The position numbers and the translations under genes are program-made. The notes beneath the pieces are model-generated. The model saw only the letters and a list, made by a program, of their open reading frames with translations, had not been told where the DNA came from and ran no database searches. Of a stretch of DNA of 32,247 nucleotides, positions 2,832-32,247 are shown one piece after another (within the stretch, counting starts at the first letter, position 1; each line of letters begins with the position of its first letter). Location of the stretch: contig VGRJ01000048.1 in the NCBI GenBank assembly GCA_016875405.1, forward strand, positions 1 through 32,247. The letters are read 5' to 3'. This DNA is from Deltaproteobacteria bacterium. GTDB lineage: Bacteria; Myxococcota_A; Polyangia; Polyangiales; Polyangiaceae.

Positions 2832-4526
<1,695 letters not shown>

Positions 4527-4529
<3 letters not shown>

Positions 4530-4546
4530 CCGTCAGCGCTCGGTCA
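4527..4546. terminator. Inverted repeat joining the two convergent stop codons
   Basis: TGACCG (4527-4532) and CGGTCA (4541-4546) form a 6-bp perfect stem around an 8-base loop. The left arm starts with the pyrG stop codon and the right arm ends with the complement of the stop codon of the opposite gene. There is no T-run on either side, so a role as a two-way terminator is only a guess. Confidence 0.3.
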
Positions 4547-7500
4547 CTGGATGCCGTAACGCGCGAGCCGCCGATAAAACGTTCGGCGCGGGATCCCCAC
4601 GAGTCGAGCTGCCTCGGCACGGTTCCAGCCCGTGCGCTTCAGGGCGTCGAGGATGCGGACACGCTCGGCCTCGTCGTAGTCCTCACGCGAGGCCACGTCG
4701 TCGAGCTCCGTCGCTCCCTCGTCACGATGGCTCGGCTCCGAGCTTCGCGGCGCGCGCACGGGAGGCGCACCGACCCTGGGGAGATCGAAGTCGTCGACGC
4801 CGAGTTCGTCGCCGTCGCTCAAGATCCAGGCGTTCAGGAGCACGTTCTCGAGCTGGCGGACGTTGCCGGGCCAAGCATACCCCTGGAGCACCCGCGTCGC
4901 CTCGCGACTGACGCTGCGGCGCTCGCGAGAGTATCGAGCGGCGAAGATGCGCAAGAAGTGGTCGACGAGGAGCGGAACGTCCTCGGCTCGCTCGCGCAAG
5001 GACGGTGACCGCACCGCGATCACGTTGAGGCGGTAGTACAGGTCCTCGCGGAAGGTGCCGCGCGCCACCATGTCCGCAAGGTCGCGGTGCGTCGCGGCGA
5101 TGACGCGGACGTCGACGCTCTCCTCCTTCGTGCCGCCGACGGGCCGAAGGACCTTTTCTTGCAGGACGCGCAAGAGACCCGCCTGCATTTTCTGCGGCAT
5201 CTCGCCGATCTCGTCGAGGAGGATCGTGCCGCCGTCGAGCTCACGAAAGAGGCCCTTCTTGTCCCGATCGGCGCCCGTAAAGGCGCCGCGCACGTGTCCG
5301 AACAGCTCGCTCTCGAGCAAGTGCTCGGGGATGGCCCCGCAGTTTAGGCCGACGAAGCGCTGCTTCGCGCGCGACCCCATCGCGTGGACCGTACGAGCGA
5401 TCACCTCCTTGCCGGTGCCGCTCTCACCTGTGATGAGCAGCGGGACGTCGGCGTCCTTCACGCGCTCGATCACCGCATAGACGCTGCGCATCGCGTCGCT
5501 CGTACCCACGATGTCGCCGTACCCGAAGTGCCCGCGCAGGACGGCCTTGACGCTTCGGAGCGAGCGCTTCGTCTCGGCGAGCTGCTCGGTGCGGCGACCG
5601 AGCACCTCCTCGAGCTTCGTGCGGGCCGCCTCGAGCTCTCGGTTCGCAGCCTCGAGCTCGAGCGCGCGCTCACGGTTCTCGGAGAGGAGCCGCGCCGTCT
5701 GGATCGCGATCGCCGACTGCTCGGCGAGCGCCAGCAGCGAGGGGATCTCGGCCGCAAACGTGGCGCCAGACCGGAGGCGCGTCTCGAGGTAGAGCGCCCC
5801 GAGTTTATCACCAGACCGCGCGCGGATCGGCGCGCAGACCACCGATCGCAGCATCAACTGGTGAACCGACACGTACCCGGCGACGCGCTCGTCGCTGGGG
5901 GCGTCGACCGCCAAGAAGACCTCGCCCGTCGCGAGCACGCGCTCGGCGATCGAGCGCGAAAACACTGTGTGCGGCTCGTTTCCGTCTCGCTCGCGCGCCG
6001 CGTGAATGCTGAGGTATGGCTCCCCCGAGCGACTTCGCAGAAGGACGAAGCCCTGCTCGGCGTCGAGGAGGCGGACCGCACACTCGGCGATGCGGTCGAG
6101 CAACCGCTCGAGGTCGTATTCGCCCGCGAGCTGGCGATTGATTTCGAGCAAGAGCGAGAGCCTGTCGTTGCGCGGAACCGGAGCGCCGAGCTGCGTTGCA
6201 GCGGACGCATCGAACTCGGCATCGAGGATGAACGACGACGACGGTCCTGCCACGAGCGACGGGCGCGGCGGAGCCACGCTCCCTGGTCGGCCTCGAAGGT
6301 CGCGGCGGCGCGGGTCGTTCCAGAAGACCTCCTTCAGGTCGCGCGGCAGCGGAGCCGCGATCGCCTCGAGGCTCGCAACCGCGCGGCGGGTGTCATCCGC
6401 CTCATCGGCGGGCCGAAACTCGGCGGCCGAGAGCTGCGCGCGAGCGAGGAGCGCACGCCAGACCCAGTCTCGCTGACCGCGCCTCTCGGCGGCCGCGAGG
6501 CACTCGTCGAACGCCGCGCGAGAGTCCGCCCAACGCCCCGCGAGGTATGCGACGGTCGCCTTCGCGAAGTGCCGCAGCGCCTCGTGCGTCGTGGAGTCGC
6601 CGAGGATCGCCTCAGCGGCGAGCAGCTCGTCCTGGAGCTGAAGCGGGTCCCATCCCGGCACCTTGGCGAGGACCAGGATCCTCTCGAGCAGTGCCTCGGC
6701 CGCGTCGCTGAGTCGCCCGAGCTCTTGGTAGATCTCTGCGCTCGCGACGAGCTTTTCCTGACCGAGCTCGAGCTCACCCGCGAGGACGCAACTCTCGGCC
6801 TCGAGCCCGAGGAGCTGCGCTCGCGCCGCGCCTGAGAGGCGGTCACGTTCGGCGGCGAGCGCGTCGAGGGAGGCCTGCGCGCGGGCGAGTCGTCCCACGT
6901 AGAGGTCGAGGCTCGCGAGGTTGAAGAGCGCCTGACGAAGCGCGGCCGCGCGGCCGCTGCGACGTCCCATGTCGACAGCGGCCTCGAGGTGAGCGAGAGC
7001 CGAGCCGATGTCTCCGCGTTGATGCGCGATCGTTCCGAGGTTGAGGCGCGTCGTGGCGACGTAGCCCGCGTCGCCCGCGCGCTCGGCGTGCTCGAGGGCG
7101 TCAAGATAGGCTACCTCTGCGTCGGCGAGCTTGTCGCTGCGCTGGAGCGCGAAGGCCAGCGAGCCGAACGCGACCGCGGCGACGCGCGGCTCACCGGGGA
7201 TCCGCGCAAGCGCGGCCGCACGCTCGAGGGTGTCGAGGGCGAGCGCATGTCGCCCGGAAAGGCTTCGCGCGAGCCCGGCGACGGCGAGCGCATCGACGAT
7301 GAGGTGATGCGCTCCGAGCGGGGCGAGCTCGTCGGCCGGTGCCTCGACGTCGGTACCAAGAGCGGAGAGGGCTCGGTTCGCGTGGACCTCCGCGTTCGAG
7401 TGATCGCCGGCACGCAGATGTGCGCGCGCCTTCTGTCCATGCCAGGCCGCAACCTCGAGGGGCATCGCCGAGGCGAGAAGCGACTCGGTCGCGACGAGGG

Positions 7501-9055
7501 CGTCGAGGGCGCTGACCGGTTCACCGCGACCAGTCAGCAGCTTCGCGCGCGCGAGCGACAGGGAGAGCGAGACCTCGTCAGCATAGGCCTCGAGGTACTC
7601 GGCCGCGGTATCGAGCCGGCCACGGTCGAGCAGGCGATGGACCTCCACGAGATCGATGCGCACGCCCGAAGGCACCGGAGCCTCCTCGAGCGCGGCGTCG
7701 AGGTCATCGAGCGACACCACGGCGCGCGACTCGAGGCGCTCGATTGTCGCGCGCAGCGGCCCGGGGAACCCGCCCGCGCGCGACACGAGCTGACGCGCGA
7801 CCTCGTCGCGGAGCGAGGGCATGAAGCGCGCCACGAGCGCGCGTGCGTCGACGTCCTGAAGAGGCGAGACCTGGAACCATCCAAAGGTCCGGTCGCTCTC
7901 GAGGCCCACCTCTCCGGGCCTCCCGCCCACCGTCGCGACGAGCCGGGCGCCGCGCGCGCGAAGGGCGTCGATGCGCCGAAAGTCGCTCTCGGGCAGTCGG
8001 TCGGCGTCGTCAACGAGCAAAACGAGCGTGCTCGGATCGTCGGGCAACATCGAGGGTGCAAGCGCGAGATCGAGGGTCGCAGGCTCACCGGCGGCGATGT
8101 CGACGACGGCGTGGCCACCAACCCCGAGCGACCAGGACAGGCGTCGGAGCAACGTCGTGCGGCCCGACCCGGATGGGCCGCCGACGATGAGGCCCGACCC
8201 CGAAGGCATGCCCGCGACGACCGAGAGCAGCTCGGCCGAGACGGCGTCACCTCCAACGATCGTCCAGACTCGACGGGTGTCGGTGCCGCGATGGGACATG
8301 GCCGCCGCATCGTCGAGCTGAAGCGCGGAGCGGAGGGCCTCGGCGAACTCGTCGACGCTCGGATACCGCTCGGCCGGCACCTCGGACGTGGCGCGGCGAG
8401 CCACCGCGCGTGCCGCGACGACGTGACGCTTGCCGAGCGAGCGCCCCGTCGCCGACAAGGTCTCCTCGAGGCTCGCGCCGAGGGCGTAGACCTCGGCCTG
8501 CGGAGTGAGCGGCTCGCAGCGGAACAGCTCGGGCGCCGCGTAGCGAGGCGTGAGCCCCTCGGGCCGCGCGCCCCCCTCGCGCCACGCGGCGGCCAGCCCG
8601 AGGTCGACCAGTGTCGCGCGCCCGTCGGGGCCGACGATGATGTTCGCGGGCTTCACGTCCCCGTGGAGCAAGAGGGCGCGATGGAGGCTCGTGAGGAGAT
8701 CGGCCGCCTGGATCAACGCGCCGAGGCAGACGCGCGCATCTGACTTGGTATTGATCAAGTCGGCGAGGCTCGAGCCGACCACGAGCTCGCGGGCAAGGTA
8801 AACACGCCCCGAGCGCGGGAGGCGCCCGAAATGGAGGACCCGCGGAACGCCGAGCCCCTCGATGCCGGAGAGCGCCGTGGCCTCGCGCACGAGGGCCATC
8901 ACCTCCGGCTCGTCGGCACCTGGCCTGAGGAGCTTCAACGCGACGTCGGCCCCGGTCACGCGATCGCGCGCGGACCAGACCTCCCCGCTCCCGCCCTGCC
9001 CGAGGCGCTCGATCGGTTCGTAACGTGCGGGGAACTCGGCCGTCATCGCGATCAT
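4544..9055 (-). CDS. Ser/Thr kinase - ATPase - TPR - GAF - sigma54 activator fusion regulator
   Basis: A 1,503-residue cytoplasmic signalling protein. Order: protein kinase (~10-245; Gly-loop GQGGSGEV at 19-26, Lys41, catalytic loop HGDVKPAN with Asp133, DLG at 151-153); a STAND/AAA-like ATPase (~265-440; P-loop GPSGSGRTT with Arg299 where Lys is usual, Walker B LVLLVDDADRL); TPR-like helices (~475-910); GAF (~970-1125); a coiled coil (~1126-1165); the sigma54-contacting AAA+ domain (Walker A GESGTGKE at 1210, GAFTGA at 1257-1262, Walker B GGTILLDEIGE); and a Fis-type helix-turn-helix in the last ~38 residues (NRAEAARLVGIPRRTFYRRL). The presence of GAFTGA means it should activate RNA polymerase-sigma54. 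The kinase-ATPase-TPR front resembles PknK-like proteins. Targets are unknown; no response regulator receiver domain is present. ATG at 9055 places the kinase at the usual distance from the N-terminus. Confidence 0.94.
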   Translation of the reverse strand: MIAMTAEFPARYEPIERLGQGGSGEVWSARDRVTGADVALKLLRPGADEPEVMALVREATALSGIEGLGVPRVLHFGRLPRSGRVYLARELVVGSSLADLINTKSDARVCLGALIQAADLLTSLHRALLLHGDVKPANIIVGPDGRATLVDLGLAAAWREGGARPEGLTPRYAAPELFRCEPLTPQAEVYALGASLEETLSATGRSLGKRHVVAARAVARRATSEVPAERYPSVDEFAEALRSALQLDDAAAMSHRGTDTRRVWTIVGGDAVSAELLSVVAGMPSGSGLIVGGPSGSGRTTLLRRLSWSLGVGGHAVVDIAAGEPATLDLALAPSMLPDDPSTLVLLVDDADRLPESDFRRIDALRARGARLVATVGGRPGEVGLESDRTFGWFQVSPLQDVDARALVARFMPSLRDEVARQLVSRAGGFPGPLRATIERLESRAVVSLDDLDAALEEAPVPSGVRIDLVEVHRLLDRGRLDTAAEYLEAYADEVSLSLSLARAKLLTGRGEPVSALDALVATESLLASAMPLEVAAWHGQKARAHLRAGDHSNAEVHANRALSALGTDVEAPADELAPLGAHHLIVDALAVAGLARSLSGRHALALDTLERAAALARIPGEPRVAAVAFGSLAFALQRSDKLADAEVAYLDALEHAERAGDAGYVATTRLNLGTIAHQRGDIGSALAHLEAAVDMGRRSGRAAALRQALFNLASLDLYVGRLARAQASLDALAAERDRLSGAARAQLLGLEAESCVLAGELELGQEKLVASAEIYQELGRLSDAAEALLERILVLAKVPGWDPLQLQDELLAAEAILGDSTTHEALRHFAKATVAYLAGRWADSRAAFDECLAAAERRGQRDWVWRALLARAQLSAAEFRPADEADDTRRAVASLEAIAAPLPRDLKEVFWNDPRRRDLRGRPGSVAPPRPSLVAGPSSSFILDAEFDASAATQLGAPVPRNDRLSLLLEINRQLAGEYDLERLLDRIAECAVRLLDAEQGFVLLRSRSGEPYLSIHAARERDGNEPHTVFSRSIAERVLATGEVFLAVDAPSDERVAGYVSVHQLMLRSVVCAPIRARSGDKLGALYLETRLRSGATFAAEIPSLLALAEQSAIAIQTARLLSENRERALELEAANRELEAARTKLEEVLGRRTEQLAETKRSLRSVKAVLRGHFGYGDIVGTSDAMRSVYAVIERVKDADVPLLITGESGTGKEVIARTVHAMGSRAKQRFVGLNCGAIPEHLLESELFGHVRGAFTGADRDKKGLFRELDGGTILLDEIGEMPQKMQAGLLRVLQEKVLRPVGGTKEESVDVRVIAATHRDLADMVARGTFREDLYYRLNVIAVRSPSLRERAEDVPLLVDHFLRIFAARYSRERRSVSREATRVLQGYAWPGNVRQLENVLLNAWILSDGDELGVDDFDLPRVGAPPVRAPRSSEPSHRDEGATELDDVASREDYDEAERVRILDALKRTGWNRAEAARLVGIPRRTFYRRLARYGIQ

Positions 9056-26767: not shown

Positions 26768-27949
26768 GTGATCGCTAGGAGGCTCCGCCCGCTCGTTGCC
26801 GTCGCCATCGCGGCGCTGCTCGGCGGCGCCCGCCCTTCGTACGCCGAAGCACCGAGCGAGCCCGTCCCCCCGACGGCGCCAACGGTGACGGCCCCCGAGT
26901 CTCCGACGGTGGCTGAGCCCAATGCCGGCGCGACACCGGATGGCGCCGCAGGCGACGCGACCTCGACGCCGGCGAAGAAGCGGCGCCCCGCGAAGGAGCG
27001 CCCGGGCGGGATCAACCCCTGCATGACGCCGGACCCCGGGTTCGGACTCTACGACGGGTGGTCACGCGCGATCAGCATGGGGCAGCTCCTCGCCCCAAAG
27101 CGCGGCGGCGTGACGAAGTCGGGCGCGTTCGATCTGCTGATCCACTTCCACGGGCACGAGCCGATCCGCAAGGAGTTCGTGAAGAGCGCGAGCGGCATCG
27201 TGCTCGTCGGCATCGACCTCGGAATCGGCTCGGGTGCCTACTCCTCGGCGTTTGCGACGCCGCAAGCCTTCGAGCGCCTGCTCGAGAGCATCCGTCAGGA
27301 GATGGCGCGGCGCACGGGGCGCGCGGACACGACGATCCGCCGGCTCGGGCTGTCGTCATGGAGCGCAGGCTACGGCGCCATCCAGCAGATCCTCCGACAG
27401 CCTGCCGGCGCGAAGGTGGACTCGGTCGTGCTGCTCGACTCGCTCCACGCCGGGTACCAGGACGGATCGAGCGCGGTCGCTCCGCTCAGCCTCGAACCGT
27501 TCGTCGCGTTCGCGCAAAAGGCGGCGCGGGGCCAGAAATTCCTGTTTCAGTCCTACTCGTCGATCGTCCCGCCGGGCTACGCGTCGACGCGCGAGGTCGC
27601 GCACTTCCTCGTGGAACGACTCGGCGGGCGCGTCCGCAGGACGAAGCGCGCGGATGTGCTGGGCCTCGCGATGGACGAGCGCTTCGACCGCGGCAATTAT
27701 CACGTGCGCGGCTACCTCGGCGACGACAAGCCCGATCACTGCGCCCACCTCGGGCTCATCAAGGACGTCGTGAGGTCGCACCTCAATCGACGCTGGGCTC
27801 CCCCGAAGGCCCTCCCCGAGCCGCGGCGCACGCTGCCGCGAACGACGAAGGGCACGAGCAAGACCGCAAACAAGGAGCGCGGCGTCGGCAGGCTCAGCGG
27901 CTCTTCCGACCGGGCGTCCAGGCCGCGAACCAAGCCCGCGCCGCGCTAG
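26768..27949 (+). CDS. Exported serine-hydrolase-like (esterase-like) protein
   Basis: A 393-residue protein not placed in a named family. GTG 26768 has a good ribosome site (GAAGGG, six bases upstream) and starts a signal peptide (RRLRPLVAVAIAALLGGARPSYA). A Pro/Ala/Thr-rich linker follows (~28-75). The mature part has alpha/beta-hydrolase features: LLIHFHGH early, then SSWSAGYGAI, a GxSxG-like elbow whose Ser would be the nucleophile, and VVLLDSLHAGY after it; the catalytic His may be in the NYHVRGY or CAHLG region. The C-terminal ~50 residues are basic and Pro/Arg/Lys-rich. It is probably an envelope esterase or related enzyme, substrate unknown. Its last 56 bases overlap the 3' end of the convergent M1 aminopeptidase gene. 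Confidence 0.77.
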   Translation: MIARRLRPLVAVAIAALLGGARPSYAEAPSEPVPPTAPTVTAPESPTVAEPNAGATPDGAAGDATSTPAKKRRPAKERPGGINPCMTPDPGFGLYDGWSRAISMGQLLAPKRGGVTKSGAFDLLIHFHGHEPIRKEFVKSASGIVLVGIDLGIGSGAYSSAFATPQAFERLLESIRQEMARRTGRADTTIRRLGLSSWSAGYGAIQQILRQPAGAKVDSVVLLDSLHAGYQDGSSAVAPLSLEPFVAFAQKAARGQKFLFQSYSSIVPPGYASTREVAHFLVERLGGRVRRTKRADVLGLAMDERFDRGNYHVRGYLGDDKPDHCAHLGLIKDVVRSHLNRRWAPPKALPEPRRTLPRTTKGTSKTANKERGVGRLSGSSDRASRPRTKPAPR

Positions 27950-30650
27950 CCTGACGGGCGCGAAGGTCGACGCAGACCCCGATCGACTCGAGCGCCTCGG
28001 AGAGGCGGCGCGACGAGCCGCCGAGCTGCGTGACGAGCGGACCGAAGACACCCGCGACGCGAGCGCGCTCCTCCTCGCTGCACGCGCGCGCGTAGGACGT
28101 GAGGTAAGAGGACGCACTCATCGGATCGGTGCGGCTCACGAGGGCGTTGAAGTTCGCTTCGAGCCAGGCCGCGAGGACGGCGCGCCCCGTCTCGGTCGCG
28201 GCGGCTGCACGCGCGAGGTAGCGCGCGTCCGATGGACGAACCCCACCCGAGAGGATGAGGTCGAGCGCGCGCTGAAGCTCTGCCGGCTCGCCGAGGCTTC
28301 CGAGGGCTCGGAGCAGGCGAATTCGATGCTCGGGAGCCGAGTCGGCCGCGAGTGCGCGTAGGAGCGCCTCCCGGTCGACCGCGCGGCGGCGCGCCGCGAT
28401 CCGGAGGGCGACGCCCGCGACGTCCGGGCTCACGCTTTCCGGCGAACGCAGGTAGGCGCTCGCCCGCCGCGCCGCCTCCTCCTCGAGCGCACGCGTGCTC
28501 GCATGCACCCCGAGCACCTCGAAAACGAGCTCGCGAACCAGCGGAACGTCGTCACGCTCACCGCGCCGCGGCTGCCAGCCGAGGTCTTTCGCTGCAGCCG
28601 AGAACAAGCCGCTCACCCAGCGACCGAACGAGGCCCTCGAGGGCTCGTCGACGACCGTGAGCGCGAGGCGATCGACGAGCTCGACGACGACGGTCATGGT
28701 CTCGAGATCGCGAGAAGCGGCAGCCTCCTCGAGGAAGCCGAGGAGCTCGACCAGCTCGAGCTCACCGCTCTCGACGAGTCCCCAAGCGTTGCCGAGGAAG
28801 CCGACACGCGCGCGCACATCGGTCGCGGGGGTGCTACGCCAGAGCCGACGGAGCTCGTCGGCGGTCATCGCGTAGCGGTAGTAGCCTCGATGGTCCTCGT
28901 TCGGGGCGATCCACGACGGGCATCCGTCGAGCGCGAGCTCCTGACGAGGCTCCGCGAGCAGGGTGCAGACGCGCCGCGCAGCGCTGCTCGCCGAAGGAGA
29001 CGACCCCTCGAGCTCGTAGCGTAGACACATCGGGATGCGCCAGCGCCCCTCGTCGCTCGCGCGCGCGGTCGGTCGATGTCGTCGCTGCTCGAGGGCGAGG
29101 CGCCCGCGACCTCCCTCGCAGGACCGCGTGACACGAACCACCGGAACCCCCGGCTGATCGACGAACGAACTCGCGATCCCTGCGACGTCGATGCGCCTTG
29201 CCTCACCGAGCGCATCGAACAGGTCGCGCGCCGTCGCGTTCGCGTGCGCGTGCCGCGTGAGGTAGAGGCCCACGCCCCGACGAAACGGCTCGTCGCCGAG
29301 GTACGAGTGGAGCATCCCGAGGATCGCGCTCCCCTTCGAGTAGGTGATCGCGTCGAACGCCTCCTCCGCCTCGTACACGGTTCGCACCGGCTCCCGAACA
29401 CGTCGCGCCGAGTCCAGGCCATCGAGCCTCATCACCGAGCCGAGGTGCACGAGATCCTCGAGCTCTGCGCGCGTCTCGGGGCGCCACTCGTCGGCCGCGA
29501 GCCCCTCGAAATACGAAGCAGAGCCCTCGTTCAGCCAGAGGTCGTCCCACCACCGCAGGGTCACGAGGTCACCGAACCATTGGTGCGCGAGCTCGTGGGC
29601 CATCAGCTGGAGGGCGTTTCGGCGGGCTCGCGCGCTCGATTTCGCATCGACGAGCAAGAGCTCCTCGCGGAACGTGACGAGCCCGGCGTTCTCCATCGCC
29701 CCCGCGGCAAACGCGGGCACCGCGACGAGATCGAGCTTTGAGTAGGGGTAAGGCGTCCCGAAGCGGCGCGCAAAGATCGCGAGCAAATCGCTCGCCATGG
29801 CCGCGGCAACACCGCCGCGGTCTGCCATGCCGCTCGGCGCGATGACGCGCACGGGGACAGGGTCTCGAGGGCCCTCATACACGTCGAAGGGACCGACGGC
29901 GAGCGCGAGCAAGTACGTCGGCAGAGGCCGGGTCGTCTCGAAGTCGTGACGCACGCGCGCGACTCCGGTCTCGGTGTCTTCGCCCGCATCGCGCTCGCGC
30001 AACAAGGCGCTGTTTGCGAAGACTCGCTGTCCGCGAGGCGCGATCACCGAGAGATCGACGGGGACCTTGTAGGAAGGATCGTCGAAGCACGGCAGGACCC
30101 GCCGCGCGTCGGCCGGCTCGAGCTGCGTGACGAGGTAACTCTTCCCATCGCGCTCGGTGCGATAGAGGCCGCGAAGTTTGTCGTCGAGCGGCGCCTGGTA
30201 CGCGATGCGAAGCTCCGCGGTCCCGGGCGGAAGCGCTTCGGCCACCTCGACGACGAGCTCCTCGGCGGAGCCCCCACCGTGCTCTGCCCCCGCAGCCCGC
30301 CGAAACGAGGCCTTCCCCGAGAGCAGTCGCTCCCCGGTCCCGACCTCGGCGCTGTCGATGGTGAGCCCCGCCCCGTGCAGGATGACCGCGCGGGTCTCGC
30401 GGACGATCTCGAGCGCGATCCGCACCTCTCCGCGAAAGCGCTTGCCGGATGGGTCGACCTCGAGCGTCCACCGGTAGCCCATCGGTCGGACGTCGTCGGG
30501 CAGGCGACCATCCGCCCGCGGCGGCGGGATCGACAGCGCGGGCGCGACGCGCTCGACGACGACGGGGGGCGCGACCACCAGATCCGAGCTCGGTCGGCAT
30601 GCGGCGACGAGGCCGACCACGAGGGAAAAGCCGAGGAAAGACCGCTTCAT
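27894..30650 (-). CDS. M1-family metallo-aminopeptidase, lipoprotein
   Basis: A 918-residue zinc aminopeptidase that removes N-terminal residues from peptides. Lipobox VAAC with Cys18 indicates that it is a lipoprotein facing the periplasm or cell surface. The M1 features are complete: the exopeptidase motif GAMEN (317-321), zinc site HELAH (His352, Glu353, His356) with the second Glu at 375 in LNEGSA, and catalytic Tyr in ITYSKG. Residues ~560-910 are helical and resemble the C-terminal domain of ERAP1/aminopeptidase N-type enzymes. ATG 30650 places the lipobox correctly; an in-frame start 13 residues further upstream would bury it. The 3' end overlaps that of the exported hydrolase by 56 bases. 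It lies 96 bases downstream of the Tox-PAAR cassette on the same strand but need not be functionally linked to it. Confidence 0.94.
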   Translation of the reverse strand: MKRSFLGFSLVVGLVAACRPSSDLVVAPPVVVERVAPALSIPPPRADGRLPDDVRPMGYRWTLEVDPSGKRFRGEVRIALEIVRETRAVILHGAGLTIDSAEVGTGERLLSGKASFRRAAGAEHGGGSAEELVVEVAEALPPGTAELRIAYQAPLDDKLRGLYRTERDGKSYLVTQLEPADARRVLPCFDDPSYKVPVDLSVIAPRGQRVFANSALLRERDAGEDTETGVARVRHDFETTRPLPTYLLALAVGPFDVYEGPRDPVPVRVIAPSGMADRGGVAAAMASDLLAIFARRFGTPYPYSKLDLVAVPAFAAGAMENAGLVTFREELLLVDAKSSARARRNALQLMAHELAHQWFGDLVTLRWWDDLWLNEGSASYFEGLAADEWRPETRAELEDLVHLGSVMRLDGLDSARRVREPVRTVYEAEEAFDAITYSKGSAILGMLHSYLGDEPFRRGVGLYLTRHAHANATARDLFDALGEARRIDVAGIASSFVDQPGVPVVRVTRSCEGGRGRLALEQRRHRPTARASDEGRWRIPMCLRYELEGSSPSASSAARRVCTLLAEPRQELALDGCPSWIAPNEDHRGYYRYAMTADELRRLWRSTPATDVRARVGFLGNAWGLVESGELELVELLGFLEEAAASRDLETMTVVVELVDRLALTVVDEPSRASFGRWVSGLFSAAAKDLGWQPRRGERDDVPLVRELVFEVLGVHASTRALEEEAARRASAYLRSPESVSPDVAGVALRIAARRRAVDREALLRALAADSAPEHRIRLLRALGSLGEPAELQRALDLILSGGVRPSDARYLARAAAATETGRAVLAAWLEANFNALVSRTDPMSASSYLTSYARACSEEERARVAGVFGPLVTQLGGSSRRLSEALESIGVCVDLRARQASAARAWFAAWTPGRKSR

Positions 30651-30746
30651 GCGACGCCGAGCGTCGTCTTCGGGCGCCGCGCGCGTCAAGCTCGAGTCGA
30701 AGCCCCCCGCGGACGTGCCAGCGTCGAGCCGCTCGGTCGCGCGTCC

Positions 30747-31157
30747 TTACCCCGAGACTCGGACCTTCGTCTGAGAGGCGGCGTCGTGGATCCCCTTCGC
30801 GTTGGCGTTCGAGCCGTTCGCGTCCACGGGGCACGTTTGATAGCCGGCTTGAGCCCCCTCGACGAAGAGCTTGCTCGAGCCTTCCGCGAGGCGCGCGCGC
30901 TCCATGTTCTTCCCCGAAACGACGCCCCCAAGCGTGCCGGCCTCGTCGCCGGACGTCGCGGGGACGACGGAGGAGACGAGGACGATCGGCCGCCCCGCGA
31001 TCCGCACCTTTTCCGCGCACGTGCGAGGACAGGTCCGCGCAAAGCTCGCCTGGTTGACGAACGGCGTCGGCAGCGGAGGCCCTGCAGGCGCCGGGACCTT
31101 GCAGGTGTCGGGGACGGAGGTGGCACCTCCGCCTTCGCGAGTGGTCACGGGAAACAT
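30747..31157 (-). CDS. Tox-PAAR-like (DUF4150) protein
   Basis: A 136-residue protein with the DUF4150/Tox-PAAR-like pattern: PDTCKVPAPAGPPLPTPFVN near the start, then VRIAGRPIVLVSSVVPATSGDEAGT, GGVVSG, and a C-terminal Asp/Asn-rich stretch (VDANGSNANAKG). Family members sit at the tip of type VI secretion spikes or related contractile systems, or form the N-terminus of toxins that these deliver. Here there is no toxin domain: the protein ends just after the PAAR-like part. ATG 31157 has a near-perfect ribosome site (AAGGAGGAG, eight bases upstream) and overlaps the end of the pentapeptide gene by 13 bases, so the two are translated as a unit. No VgrG, Hcp or sheath gene is in the window. Cys residues (positions 19, 43, 47, 109) are notable. 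Confidence 0.82.
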   Translation of the reverse strand: MFPVTTREGGGATSVPDTCKVPAPAGPPLPTPFVNQASFARTCPRTCAEKVRIAGRPIVLVSSVVPATSGDEAGTLGGVVSGKNMERARLAEGSSKLFVEGAQAGYQTCPVDANGSNANAKGIHDAASQTKVRVSG

Positions 31158-31726
31158 GCGCGAGAGCTCCTCCTTCGGTCGTCCGATGGCATCCAGGCTT
31201 CGGCGGCGGCGAGCTCGACGTCGGTGAGACGAAGGTTCGCACATGAAAGATTGGCGGAGGCGCCGGTCCATCCCGACGCGCGGTGCAGGTTCGCCGAAGA
31301 CAGCTCGGCATCGGAGAACTGCGCGCCGTCGAGCGCCGCATGAGCGAAGCTCACCCGCAAGAGCTTCGCGCCGCGAAGATCCACGCCTCGCAGCGACGCC
31401 GCGACGAACGAGGCGTCGCTCGCCGTCACGCCCGCGAGCGTCGCGCCGTCGAGGACCGTGCGGTCAAAGAACGCCTCCGTGAGTTCGCTCCCGGTCGCGT
31501 CGACGCGCTCGAGGTTCGACGCGCTGAGGTCGCACTGCTGCGCCCGCGCGCCGAGGAGCCTCACGAAACGAAGGTCCGCGCCGCGCAGGCGCACTCGAAG
31601 GAACCTGAACCCCGTGGGGTCGAGGCGCGAGAGATCGCGGCCGCTCCAGTCCACCTCCGACACCACCCGCGCGCCCGTCCATCCGCCGGTATGCGGCGCG
31701 GCGAGGAGGTCGTCGTCTCGAGTCAT
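31145..31726 (-). CDS. Pentapeptide-repeat protein
   Basis: A 193-residue protein whose centre (residues ~25-170) is made of pentapeptide repeats of the form A(D/N)LxX: RGADLRFVRLLGARAQQCDLSASNLERVDATGSELTEAFF and on to SSANLHRASGWTGASANLSCANL (parts quoted below 20 in a row where possible: RGADLRFVRLL, DLSASNLERV, SSANLHRA, SANLSCANL). Such repeats form a four-sided beta helix. In type VI systems, pentapeptide proteins often sit with DUF2169 and PAAR-like proteins and help load effectors, which suits this context. ATG 31726 has AGGAGGG five bases upstream. Its start overlaps the stop of the preceding pentapeptide frame by four bases (ATGA), and its end overlaps the Tox-PAAR start by 13 bases. 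Confidence 0.87.
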   Translation of the reverse strand: MTRDDDLLAAPHTGGWTGARVVSEVDWSGRDLSRLDPTGFRFLRVRLRGADLRFVRLLGARAQQCDLSASNLERVDATGSELTEAFFDRTVLDGATLAGVTASDASFVAASLRGVDLRGAKLLRVSFAHAALDGAQFSDAELSSANLHRASGWTGASANLSCANLRLTDVELAAAEAWMPSDDRRRSSRACFP

Positions 31727-31918
31727 CGCGGCCCTCCTCGTTGAAGCTTCGTCCGCCCGACATGGGTTCCCTCGAGGCGGACGTCATCGAGCCGCGCGTC
31801 GAAGAGCTTGGCGCCGAAGAGGTTTCCGCTCGAGGGGTTTGCCCGAGCGAGGTTCGCCTCGGCGAGGCTCGGGGGTGTCGATCTGGAAGAATTGATGGGT
31901 CTCGGCGTCGTCGCTCAT
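31723..31918 (-). pseudogene. Short pentapeptide-repeat gene with a one-base frameshift
   Basis: Two frames make one gene. From ATG 31918 (GAGG four bases upstream) the frame reads MSDDAETHQFFQIDTP, then goes into a basic, unlike-protein tail that stops at 31784. One base later in frame, the sequence reads SLAEANLARANPSSGNLF and GAKLFDARLDDVRLEG, clear pentapeptide repeats, ending at a TGA that overlaps the ATG of the next gene (ATGA). That second frame has no start codon of its own: it meets a stop right at the ATG. The switch lies in a run of five G on the plus strand (31871-31875); with four, one 64-residue-type open frame would result. It is either a sequencing/assembly error, a real broken gene, or +1 slippage during translation. 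Upstream is the window-edge gene. Confidence 0.75.
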
Positions 31919-31998
31919 CGAACCTCGGGGAGGAAGCGACCGGACCTCTTCCCGTCGAGCGACGACAACCCTGTCAGGGCTCGCTCCGCAGGACAACG

Positions 31999-32029
31999 AC
32001 GCCCGCCGAGCGTCATGCCGGGCGGGCGT
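31999..32029. terminator. Hairpin after the choice-of-anchor-L-like gene
   Basis: ACGCCCGCC (31999-32007) and GGCGGGCGT (32021-32029) form a perfect 9-bp stem with a 13-base loop. On the minus strand it begins 22 bases after the stop of the window-edge gene and precedes the start of the pentapeptide cassette at 31918, so it may separate the two transcripts. There is no T-run. Confidence 0.42.
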
Positions 32030-32050
32030 GGATTATGACACGAGCGTGCC

Positions 32051-32247
32051 TCAGCCGGTGCCGGGCACCGTCGCGTTCGTCAGCCACTTGAAGCCATCGA
32101 GGATCGCGAGCGAATCGAAAATTGAATCACCCACGTCCCAGATCACGATCCGCAGCTCGACGATGTCGCCCGGGATGACATTCCCGGCCGTCGTGAGCCA
32201 GAACGAACCTCCGCCGATGACGCAGCCGCTCGACGTCGCTTCGAATC
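32051..32247 (-). CDS. Choice-of-anchor-L-like secreted protein, C-terminal fragment
   Basis: Only the last 65 residues lie in the window: the frame is open to the edge and ends at TGA (32051-32053). The motif series FWLTTAGNVIPGDIVELRIVIWD followed by DSIFDSLAILDGFKW (quoted in parts: WLTTAGNVIPGD, LRIVIWDVGDS, DSLAILDGFKW) is that of the end of choice-of-anchor-L-type domains, large secreted proteins common in myxobacteria. What lies before this domain is unknown. It is on the same strand as the pentapeptide cassette, with a hairpin in the 132-base gap. Confidence 0.72.
   Translation of the reverse strand, partial: FEATSSGCVIGGGSFWLTTAGNVIPGDIVELRIVIWDVGDSIFDSLAILDGFKWLTNATVPGTG

What the first reader, a model, noticed from the sequence alone, without database searches (positions are those of the whole stretch)
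30747..31918. Compact pentapeptide/pentapeptide/Tox-PAAR cassette without effector or secretion genes
Three genes overlap by 4 and 13 bases with strong ribosome sites, so they are made in fixed ratio. Pentapeptide proteins next to DUF4150 proteins are known from type VI loading modules, but here the DUF2169 adaptor, VgrG and toxin are absent within the window, and the PAAR-like protein carries no toxin domain. It may be an orphan spike-tip module or a different use of the fold.
Basis: partly seen in the sequence, partly recalled or inferred. Interest (0 to 1): 0.6.

Follow-up and report, generated by a model that had tools for sequence, protein, structure and literature searches.

The report
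Headless remnant of T6SS spike-loading operon
A myxobacterial contig carries the last part of a known type of operon that builds the tip of a bacterial injection machine, with the chaperone part missing, so it is most likely a broken-off leftover copy rather than a new kind of device.

Summary
The PAAR-like gene (30747-31157, -) and one pentapeptide gene (31145-31726, -) are real and overlap by 13 bases. The third gene is not an open reading frame: the ATG at 31918 stops at 31784, and the pentapeptide frame that gives the 4-base overlap has no ATG/GTG/TTG. That frame encodes the C-terminal tail of TvpAB (DUF2169-pentapeptide); it ranked first of 1137 in-register pentapeptide stretches. The middle gene is a short TvpB, with a terminal signature that in 105 loci occurred only at the ends of pentapeptide frames (38 of 38). 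Order and overlaps match complete Class III-like Tvp clusters, one on contig C3 of the same genome. DUF2169 and VgrG are missing. Upstream lies a lipoprotein gene end, and four congeners (two incomplete) lack the cassette at this site. The PIPY protein has the longest branch of 13 relatives and breaks the most invariant columns, though its frame was selected in the past. Best reading: the 3' remnant of a Tvp operon, at most dependent on another cluster's DUF2169 and VgrG. The genome elsewhere holds a T6SS sheath gene and six DUF2169/DUF4150 pairs.

The parts
30747..31157 (-). PIPY (DUF4150, PAAR-like) spike-tip protein, 136 aa, single domain
   Evidence: PF13665 E 8.7e-22; 52% identical to the 136-aa PIPY of the complete cluster on contig C3 and 51% to its congener copies; groups with that clade, support 92/95, and outside it, support 87/87
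31145..31726 (-). TvpB-type pentapeptide repeat protein, shortened to 193 aa
   Evidence: PF00805 E 3.9e-19; terminal signature TDxxxAxAEx[WFY], found in 38 of 11317 frames of 105 related loci, each time within 30 aa of the end of a pentapeptide-rich frame, and in 1 of 307 window frames, this one
31723..31869 (-). C-terminal tail of a TvpAB (DUF2169-pentapeptide) gene, without head and without a start codon in frame; ends in the ATGA overlap with TvpB
   Evidence: Frame reading; position-specific score 17.8 against a best decoy of 0.15, rank 1 of 1137; the same 4-base TvpAB/TvpB overlap in C3, L107 and L108
31784..31918 (-).
31870..32050 (.). Probable junction and spacer of unknown origin, with a GC-rich hairpin (stem about 9 pairs) downstream of the lipoprotein stop
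   Evidence: No match to this stretch among the 7 matches listed in the own genome (40 of 498 candidates scored); fold of the minus strand
32051..32247 (-). 3' end of a lipoprotein-like gene (the C20 copy matches Pfam Stig1), cut by the contig end; near-identical copy on contig C20
   Evidence: 98.5% over 197 bp with C20:2125-2321; Pfam of the C20 copy

Best explanation
The cassette is the 3' remnant of a Class III-like Tvp operon, the type VI secretion accessory operon that loads a DUF4150/PIPY tip onto VgrG. A complete operon of this type in the same genome runs VgrG, a 541-aa protein, TvpAB (DUF2169 plus pentapeptides), TvpB, PIPY. Here only the last ~48 residues' worth of TvpAB (no head, no start), a TvpB of only 193 aa, and the PIPY gene remain, in the original order and with the original stop/start overlap. 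They sit between an M1 peptidase gene and a lipoprotein gene where congeners have nothing of the kind. Shown: identity of the three pieces, order, missing head, site occupancy. Inferred: the way it arose (a rearrangement with a breakpoint near 31870) and its activity. PIPY tips are reported to need their DUF2169 chaperone, so on its own the remnant should not load a spike. If TvpB and PIPY are still made, they would have to borrow TvpAB and VgrG from another cluster; otherwise they are decaying.
For: Tail test: rank 1 of 1137 in-register pentapeptide stretches, and 12 of 12 true tails beat every decoy in leave-one-out. TvpB signature: 38 of 38 occurrences terminal and in pentapeptide frames; single window hit in the middle gene. 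Collinear complete clusters: C3 (L029) and its orthologues in G001 and G004. Own genome: of 9 PF13665 matches, the 6 that are neither the window nor cut by a contig end all lie within about 4 kb of a PF09937 match (one of the 6, on C60, is below the Pfam cut-off); 2 more are cut by contig ends. Wider survey: a DUF2169 frame in 33 of 35 loci with about 8 kb on both sides, and in 58 of 80 overall, many of the rest cut by contig ends. Site: no cassette next to the M1 peptidase in G001, G004, G003 and G002. Relaxed constraint: 5 of 26 otherwise invariant columns broken, most of 13 sequences (next 4 of 25); terminal branch 0.74 against a median of 0.22; 4 of 25 in a 37-sequence set, tied for most with L152 (4 of 26), median 0. 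Chaperone need: PMC11883445 and PMC13373197 (passages).
Against: PIPY and TvpB are both open, with good ribosome sites. PIPY has the same length as its C3 relative and no gaps against it, and 52% identity lies above all 2000 neutral placements of the same number of base changes (mean 0.345, max 0.449; this covers both lineages together), so selection acted for much of their history. With a looser conservation rule the window is only tied for most broken positions (8 of 44, G053 8 of 45). The contig ends 378 bases upstream of the tail, so the upstream context is only partly known. The 29-residue tail alignment was set by eye, and 11 of the 23 frames caught by the DUF2169 search were left out of the profile. 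A generic profile HMM of the same tails separates poorly: the window ranks about 29th of 1904 stretches. The C3 cluster shows no Pfam DUF3540 (TvpC) gene; its 541-aa protein matches no family, so 'Class III' is a likeness.
Confidence: 0.78

Rival explanations
1. A functional trans-acting spare tip: TvpB and PIPY are still expressed and are loaded onto a VgrG by a DUF2169 protein from another cluster (for example C3, or the DUF2169 genes on C2 and C12), giving an interchangeable spike tip.
For: Both frames are open; past purifying selection; the genome holds type VI sheath genes (3 VipB matches) and about 12 DUF2169 genes (16 matches, some in pieces), more than its 9 PF13665 matches.
Against: Five otherwise invariant positions changed and the longest branch; TvpB shorter than all 38 signature-bearing frames; no closer relative than 51% in two near-complete congeners; no sigma-70-like promoter matched, though that scan is weak for this phylum.
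Confidence: 0.15
2. The start of the first gene is intact in the living strain, as a short pentapeptide protein made from the ATG at 31918, and the frame break is an assembly error or is bridged by frameshifting.
For: An ATG with a weak ribosome-site-like GAGG lies upstream of the junction. No reads were available to check the assembly.
Against: The residues before the junction are not pentapeptide-like, and tail homology starts at the junction. Even as one protein it would be about 65 aa and lack DUF2169, so the cassette stays headless.
Confidence: 0.12
3. The operon is complete and simply interrupted by the contig end or a misassembly at the right end of C48.
For: The window is a whole contig of a 218-contig assembly, and its last 197 bases are a repeated sequence.
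Against: TvpAB homology stops about 180 bases before the lipoprotein gene 3' end begins, well inside the contig. C48 and C20 fit a tandem M1 peptidase-lipoprotein duplication in a locus syntenic with congeners.
Confidence: 0.08
4. A different use of the PAAR-like fold, unrelated to type VI secretion.
For: No secretion gene among the window proteins scanned.
Against: All 12 nearest relatives' loci that I looked at (L107-L118) hold a DUF2169 frame, and 9 of the 11 whose rows are visible also show VgrG (not L113, L117; the rows of L112 were cut from the output); collinear relic of such a cluster; no defence-system profile match.
Confidence: 0.03

Closest known systems
Class III Tvp accessory system (TvpAB, TvpB, TvpC, PAAR; Serratia marcescens VgrG1 cluster), PMC13373197 (abstract and passages seen)
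   Same: TvpB-type pentapeptide protein next to a DUF4150 tip; TvpAB tail, TvpB and tip in operon order
   Different: No DUF2169 domain, no VgrG, no DUF3540 TvpC in the contig; TvpB short; TvpAB reduced to a tail without a start
PIPY (DUF4150) domains with DUF2169 chaperones, synteny type C, PMC11883445 (abstract and passages seen)
   Same: PF13665 match, single-domain tip, P-x-P-[YF] motif as PTPF
   Different: The reported co-occurrence with DUF2169 is broken at this locus; several conserved residues changed
Own-genome cluster C3:80278-88286 (L029 278-8286)
   Same: Closest complete in-genome relative; PIPY 52% identical, both 136 aa; same 4-base TvpAB/TvpB overlap
   Different: Complete: VgrG, 541-aa protein, DUF2169-pentapeptide protein, 698-aa TvpB, PIPY; a short gap instead of the 13-base TvpB/PIPY overlap
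Dispersed PIPY fragment in congener G001 (L163, contig CANMZR010000053.1)
   Same: Partial copy of a Tvp operon 3' end away from its cluster (387 bp, 96.9% to the G001 main cluster)
   Different: Recent copy, truncated at the 3' end of PIPY; the window copy is old and keeps a TvpB

Membership tests
DUF4150 / PIPY tip proteins | PF13665 profile match above cut-off | tested here: met
   E 8.7e-22, 77.7 bits against 31
DUF4150 / PIPY tip proteins | P(I/V)P(Y/F) motif | tested here: inconclusive
   PTPF; Thr is not I/V, but PTPF is found in 6 of the 13 aligned sequences, this one included
DUF4150 / PIPY tip proteins | PAAR-like cone fold | tested here: inconclusive
   Model pLDDT 72.7; PDB ranks 1, 3, 4 and 6 are PAAR-repeat proteins and 2 and 5 phage baseplates, but best E is 0.13. 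By sequence, a profile of 37 relatives matches one PDB sequence, 8qjc_A, a T6SS-associated Rhs protein (E 1.2e-15)
Class III Tvp system | DUF2169 TvpA/TvpAB | tested here: not met
   Only the pentapeptide tail of TvpAB remains; no DUF2169 match among the 24 window proteins or fragments scanned
Class III Tvp system | Pentapeptide TvpB | tested here: met
   PF00805 and terminal signature; shortened
Class III Tvp system | TvpC (DUF3540) and VgrG in the cluster | tested here: not met
   None among the window proteins scanned; the contig end 378 bases upstream of the tail limits this, and the complete C3 relative also shows no Pfam DUF3540
Class III Tvp system | Required for VgrG-PAAR spike assembly | not testable with these tools
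   Needs genetics or biochemistry
Type VI secretion context | Sheath protein TssC/VipB in the genome | tested here: met
   3 PF05943 matches on C5 and C16

The most novel reading that the evidence does not exclude
The TvpB-PIPY pair is kept and used without its own DUF2169 protein, either as a spare tip loaded by a foreign TvpAB or as a tip that has become independent of DUF2169. That would break the reported dependence of PIPY on a cognate DUF2169.
Probability: 0.15. Interest if true: 0.5.

Novelty: new member of a known kind. Interest (0 to 1): 0.2.

Why it matters
Mostly as an annotation lesson. A window that looked like an orphan module with an unusual three-gene set is the collinear 3' end of a known operon type, and the frame break explains the odd first gene. 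It also gives a simple terminal signature for TvpB proteins. If the pair were shown to work, it would test whether DUF2169 chaperones can serve PIPY tips encoded elsewhere.

Tried and rejected
Rejected: a complete operon directly upstream (a lipoprotein gene end is there); a shared role with the M1 peptidase (the cassette is absent at that site in 4 congeners; the locus looks like a tandem duplication of M1 peptidase-lipoprotein); a defence role (no PADLOC match); Qnr or effector-type pentapeptide identity for the middle gene (all 16 NCBIfam matches are below their cut-offs).

Led nowhere: AlphaFold of TvpB alone gave pLDDT 42.6, unusable. The PIPY model gave no PDB match with E at or below 0.001. 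A generic profile HMM of TvpAB tails did not separate tails from other pentapeptides well (window about 29th of 1904), so a score in pentapeptide register was used. The promoter and terminator scan was uninformative. Papers: PMC13373197 and PMC11883445 were seen as abstract text and passages only; others only in search listings. No title or abstract start on headless TvpB-PIPY remnants appeared in those listings, which were capped (15 of 29, 10 of 45 and 8 of 121 papers), so this says little about what is in print.

Limits: absence in G002 (67% complete) and G003 (85%) is weak evidence; G001 (97%) and G004 (98%) are stronger. The 29-residue tail profile used 12 of the 23 frames caught by the DUF2169 search; the other 11 (L030, L031 twice, L032, L033, L034 twice, L038, L039, L040, L109) were left out because they come from other cluster types, are not pentapeptide fusions, or differ in gene order. 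The DUF2169 survey used my own HMM at E 1e-5, not Pfam's, on the best 80 of 240 relatives. Some of the 105 loci are the same place fetched twice. Part of the output was cut from view (L111-L112).

Full report
What is in the sequence. The window is the whole of contig C48 of a 5.02-Mb, 218-contig genome. Two same-genus genomes appear, by equal contig lengths, to be Polyangiaceae MAGs (L124 and G001:C14, 22352 bases; L143 and G004:C13, 163360 bases); the genome's own name was not shown. On the minus strand, 30747-31157 is an open 136-aa frame matching PF13665 (E 8.7e-22) and 31145-31726 an open 193-aa frame matching PF00805 (E 3.9e-19). They overlap by 13 bases and each has a clear ribosome site. 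The ATG at 31918 stops at 31784. The frame that ends with the 4-base overlap at 31723 is open from 31914 but has no ATG, GTG or TTG. Its homology starts near 31869.

What the pieces are. In the same genome, contig C3 (locus L029) carries VgrG (278-1792), a 541-aa protein without Pfam match, a DUF2169-pentapeptide protein (3512-5770), a 698-aa pentapeptide protein and a 136-aa PF13665 protein (7876-8286), all on one strand. Orthologous clusters lie in congeners G001 (L107) and G004 (L108); in all three the two pentapeptide genes overlap by 4 bases. By the names of the 2026 EMBO J paper PMC13373197 (abstract and passages seen) these are TvpAB, TvpB and PAAR of a Class III Tvp system, although no DUF3540 TvpC was matched in the C3 cluster; another own-genome cluster (L031) has one. 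JBC 2025, PMC11883445 (passages), calls the tip domain PIPY and reports that it needs a cognate DUF2169 protein.

The first 'gene' is the tail of TvpAB. I aligned the last residues of 12 TvpAB proteins and scored a 29-column stretch against a background of pentapeptide repeats in the same register. The window tail scores 17.8; the best of 1136 decoys from TvpB proteins, TvpAB interiors and the window's own middle gene scores 0.15; all 12 true tails beat all decoys in leave-one-out. An ordinary profile HMM was much less clear (about 29th of 1904). Eleven further frames from the DUF2169 search were not used in the profile, and the placement of the 29 columns was set by eye.

The middle gene is TvpB. 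The pattern TDxxxAxAEx[WFY] occurs in 38 of 11317 frames of 105 loci (some loci are the same place fetched twice), every time within 30 aa of the end of a frame rich in pentapeptides. In the window it occurs once in 307 frames, at the end of this gene. At 193 aa (212 stop to stop) the gene is shorter than all 38 (smallest 269 stop to stop).

The tip gene. In a 13-sequence tree the window PIPY groups with C3, G001 and G004 (support 92/95) and falls outside those three (87/87, moderate), on the longest end branch, 0.74 against a median of 0.22. It breaks 5 of 26 columns that are invariant in the others; the next worst, G053, breaks 4 of 25. With columns conserved in at least 10 of the 12 others it breaks 8 of 44, tied with G053 (8 of 45). 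In a 37-sequence set it breaks 4 of 25 strongly conserved positions, tied with L152 (4 of 26) for most; the median is 0. Against this, it has not drifted freely: 52% identity to the C3 copy exceeds all 2000 neutral placements of the same 155 base changes (max 0.449; both lineages counted together), and there are no gaps or stops. Changes on the window side at codon positions 1, 2, 3 were 31/17/24 (outgroup G067), 23/9/36 (G050), 31/14/28 (G022), 25/19/29 (G004b) and 21/8/32 (G031): position 2 always lowest, a constraint that is present but not strong. The AlphaFold model is middling (pLDDT 72.7); the best six PDB fold matches are PAAR proteins or phage baseplates, but none is significant. By sequence, the family profile matches one PDB protein, a T6SS-associated Rhs (8qjc).

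Missing parts. In the own genome, of 9 PF13665 matches (8 over the cut-off), one is the window, two are cut by contig ends (C136, C44), and the other 6 all lie within about 4 kb of a PF09937 match (the C60 one is below the cut-off). Among the best 80 of 240 related loci from GTDB genomes, a DUF2169 frame is present in 58 of 80 and in 33 of the 35 with about 8 kb on both sides. So the absence here is unusual, but not unique. Pfam finds no DUF2169, VgrG or DUF3540 in the 24 window proteins or fragments scanned. The sheath gene of type VI secretion is present elsewhere.

The site. The last 197 bases of the window (32051-32247) are the 3' end of a lipoprotein-like gene, 98.5% identical to C20:2125-2321, and similarity stops at the gene end. 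On C20 that gene lies next to a second M1 peptidase, 65% identical to the one at 27894-30656. In G004 and G001 the order serA side, M1 peptidase, C20-side genes is continuous, with one close M1 peptidase copy and no cassette (a 575-aa gene stands upstream of the peptidase); G003 and G002 also lack the cassette next to the gene. C48 and C20 therefore fit a tandem M1 peptidase-lipoprotein duplication, with the cassette lodged in one junction. That joining is inferred, not shown.

Conclusion. The simplest account is a 3' remnant of a Class III-like Tvp operon. A recent scattered fragment of the same operon end in G001 (387 bp, 96.9%, L163) shows that such debris occurs in this genus. The remnant might still supply a tip to other clusters in trans, which I put at about 0.15. 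I would not file the locus as a Tvp system, because its defining DUF2169 part was tested and is absent; the two intact genes are members of the PIPY and TvpB families.

Noticed in passing
window 27894-30656 and 32051-32247; C20:1-4038 (L037): M1 peptidase and lipoprotein-like genes both occur twice: the peptidases are 65% identical, yet the last 197 bases of the lipoprotein genes are 98.5% identical with a sharp end at the stop, suggesting a recent copying or conversion event.
   Followed up: partly
L163 6213-6599 (congener G001, C53): A 387-bp, 96.9% identical dispersed fragment of the G001 PIPY gene, truncated, away from its own cluster and near a frame that looks like DUF3540 by eye.
   Followed up: partly
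L160 8001-8411 (Sandaracinaceae) and L181 3407-6856 (Sorangium): PIPY genes with no DUF2169 found by my HMM in the fetched locus; L181 has a pentapeptide protein, a TvpC-like protein and PIPY behind a VgrG-like frame (by eye). Possible further cases of DUF2169-less tips.
   Followed up: no
38 related loci, and window 31145-31726: TvpB proteins end in a conserved signature TDxxxAxAEx[WFY], seen in 38 of 38 cases only near the C-terminus.
   Followed up: yes
window 4544-9055 (-): 1503-aa protein with Ser/Thr kinase, TPR, GAF and sigma-54 activator domains plus Fis-type HTH in one chain (Pfam).
   Followed up: no
own genome C2:97186-97779, C12:12381-12959, C24:14022-14828: DUF2169 matches without a PF13665 match on the same contig; those on C2 and C12 lie next to large frames that look like VgrG by eye.
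   Followed up: no
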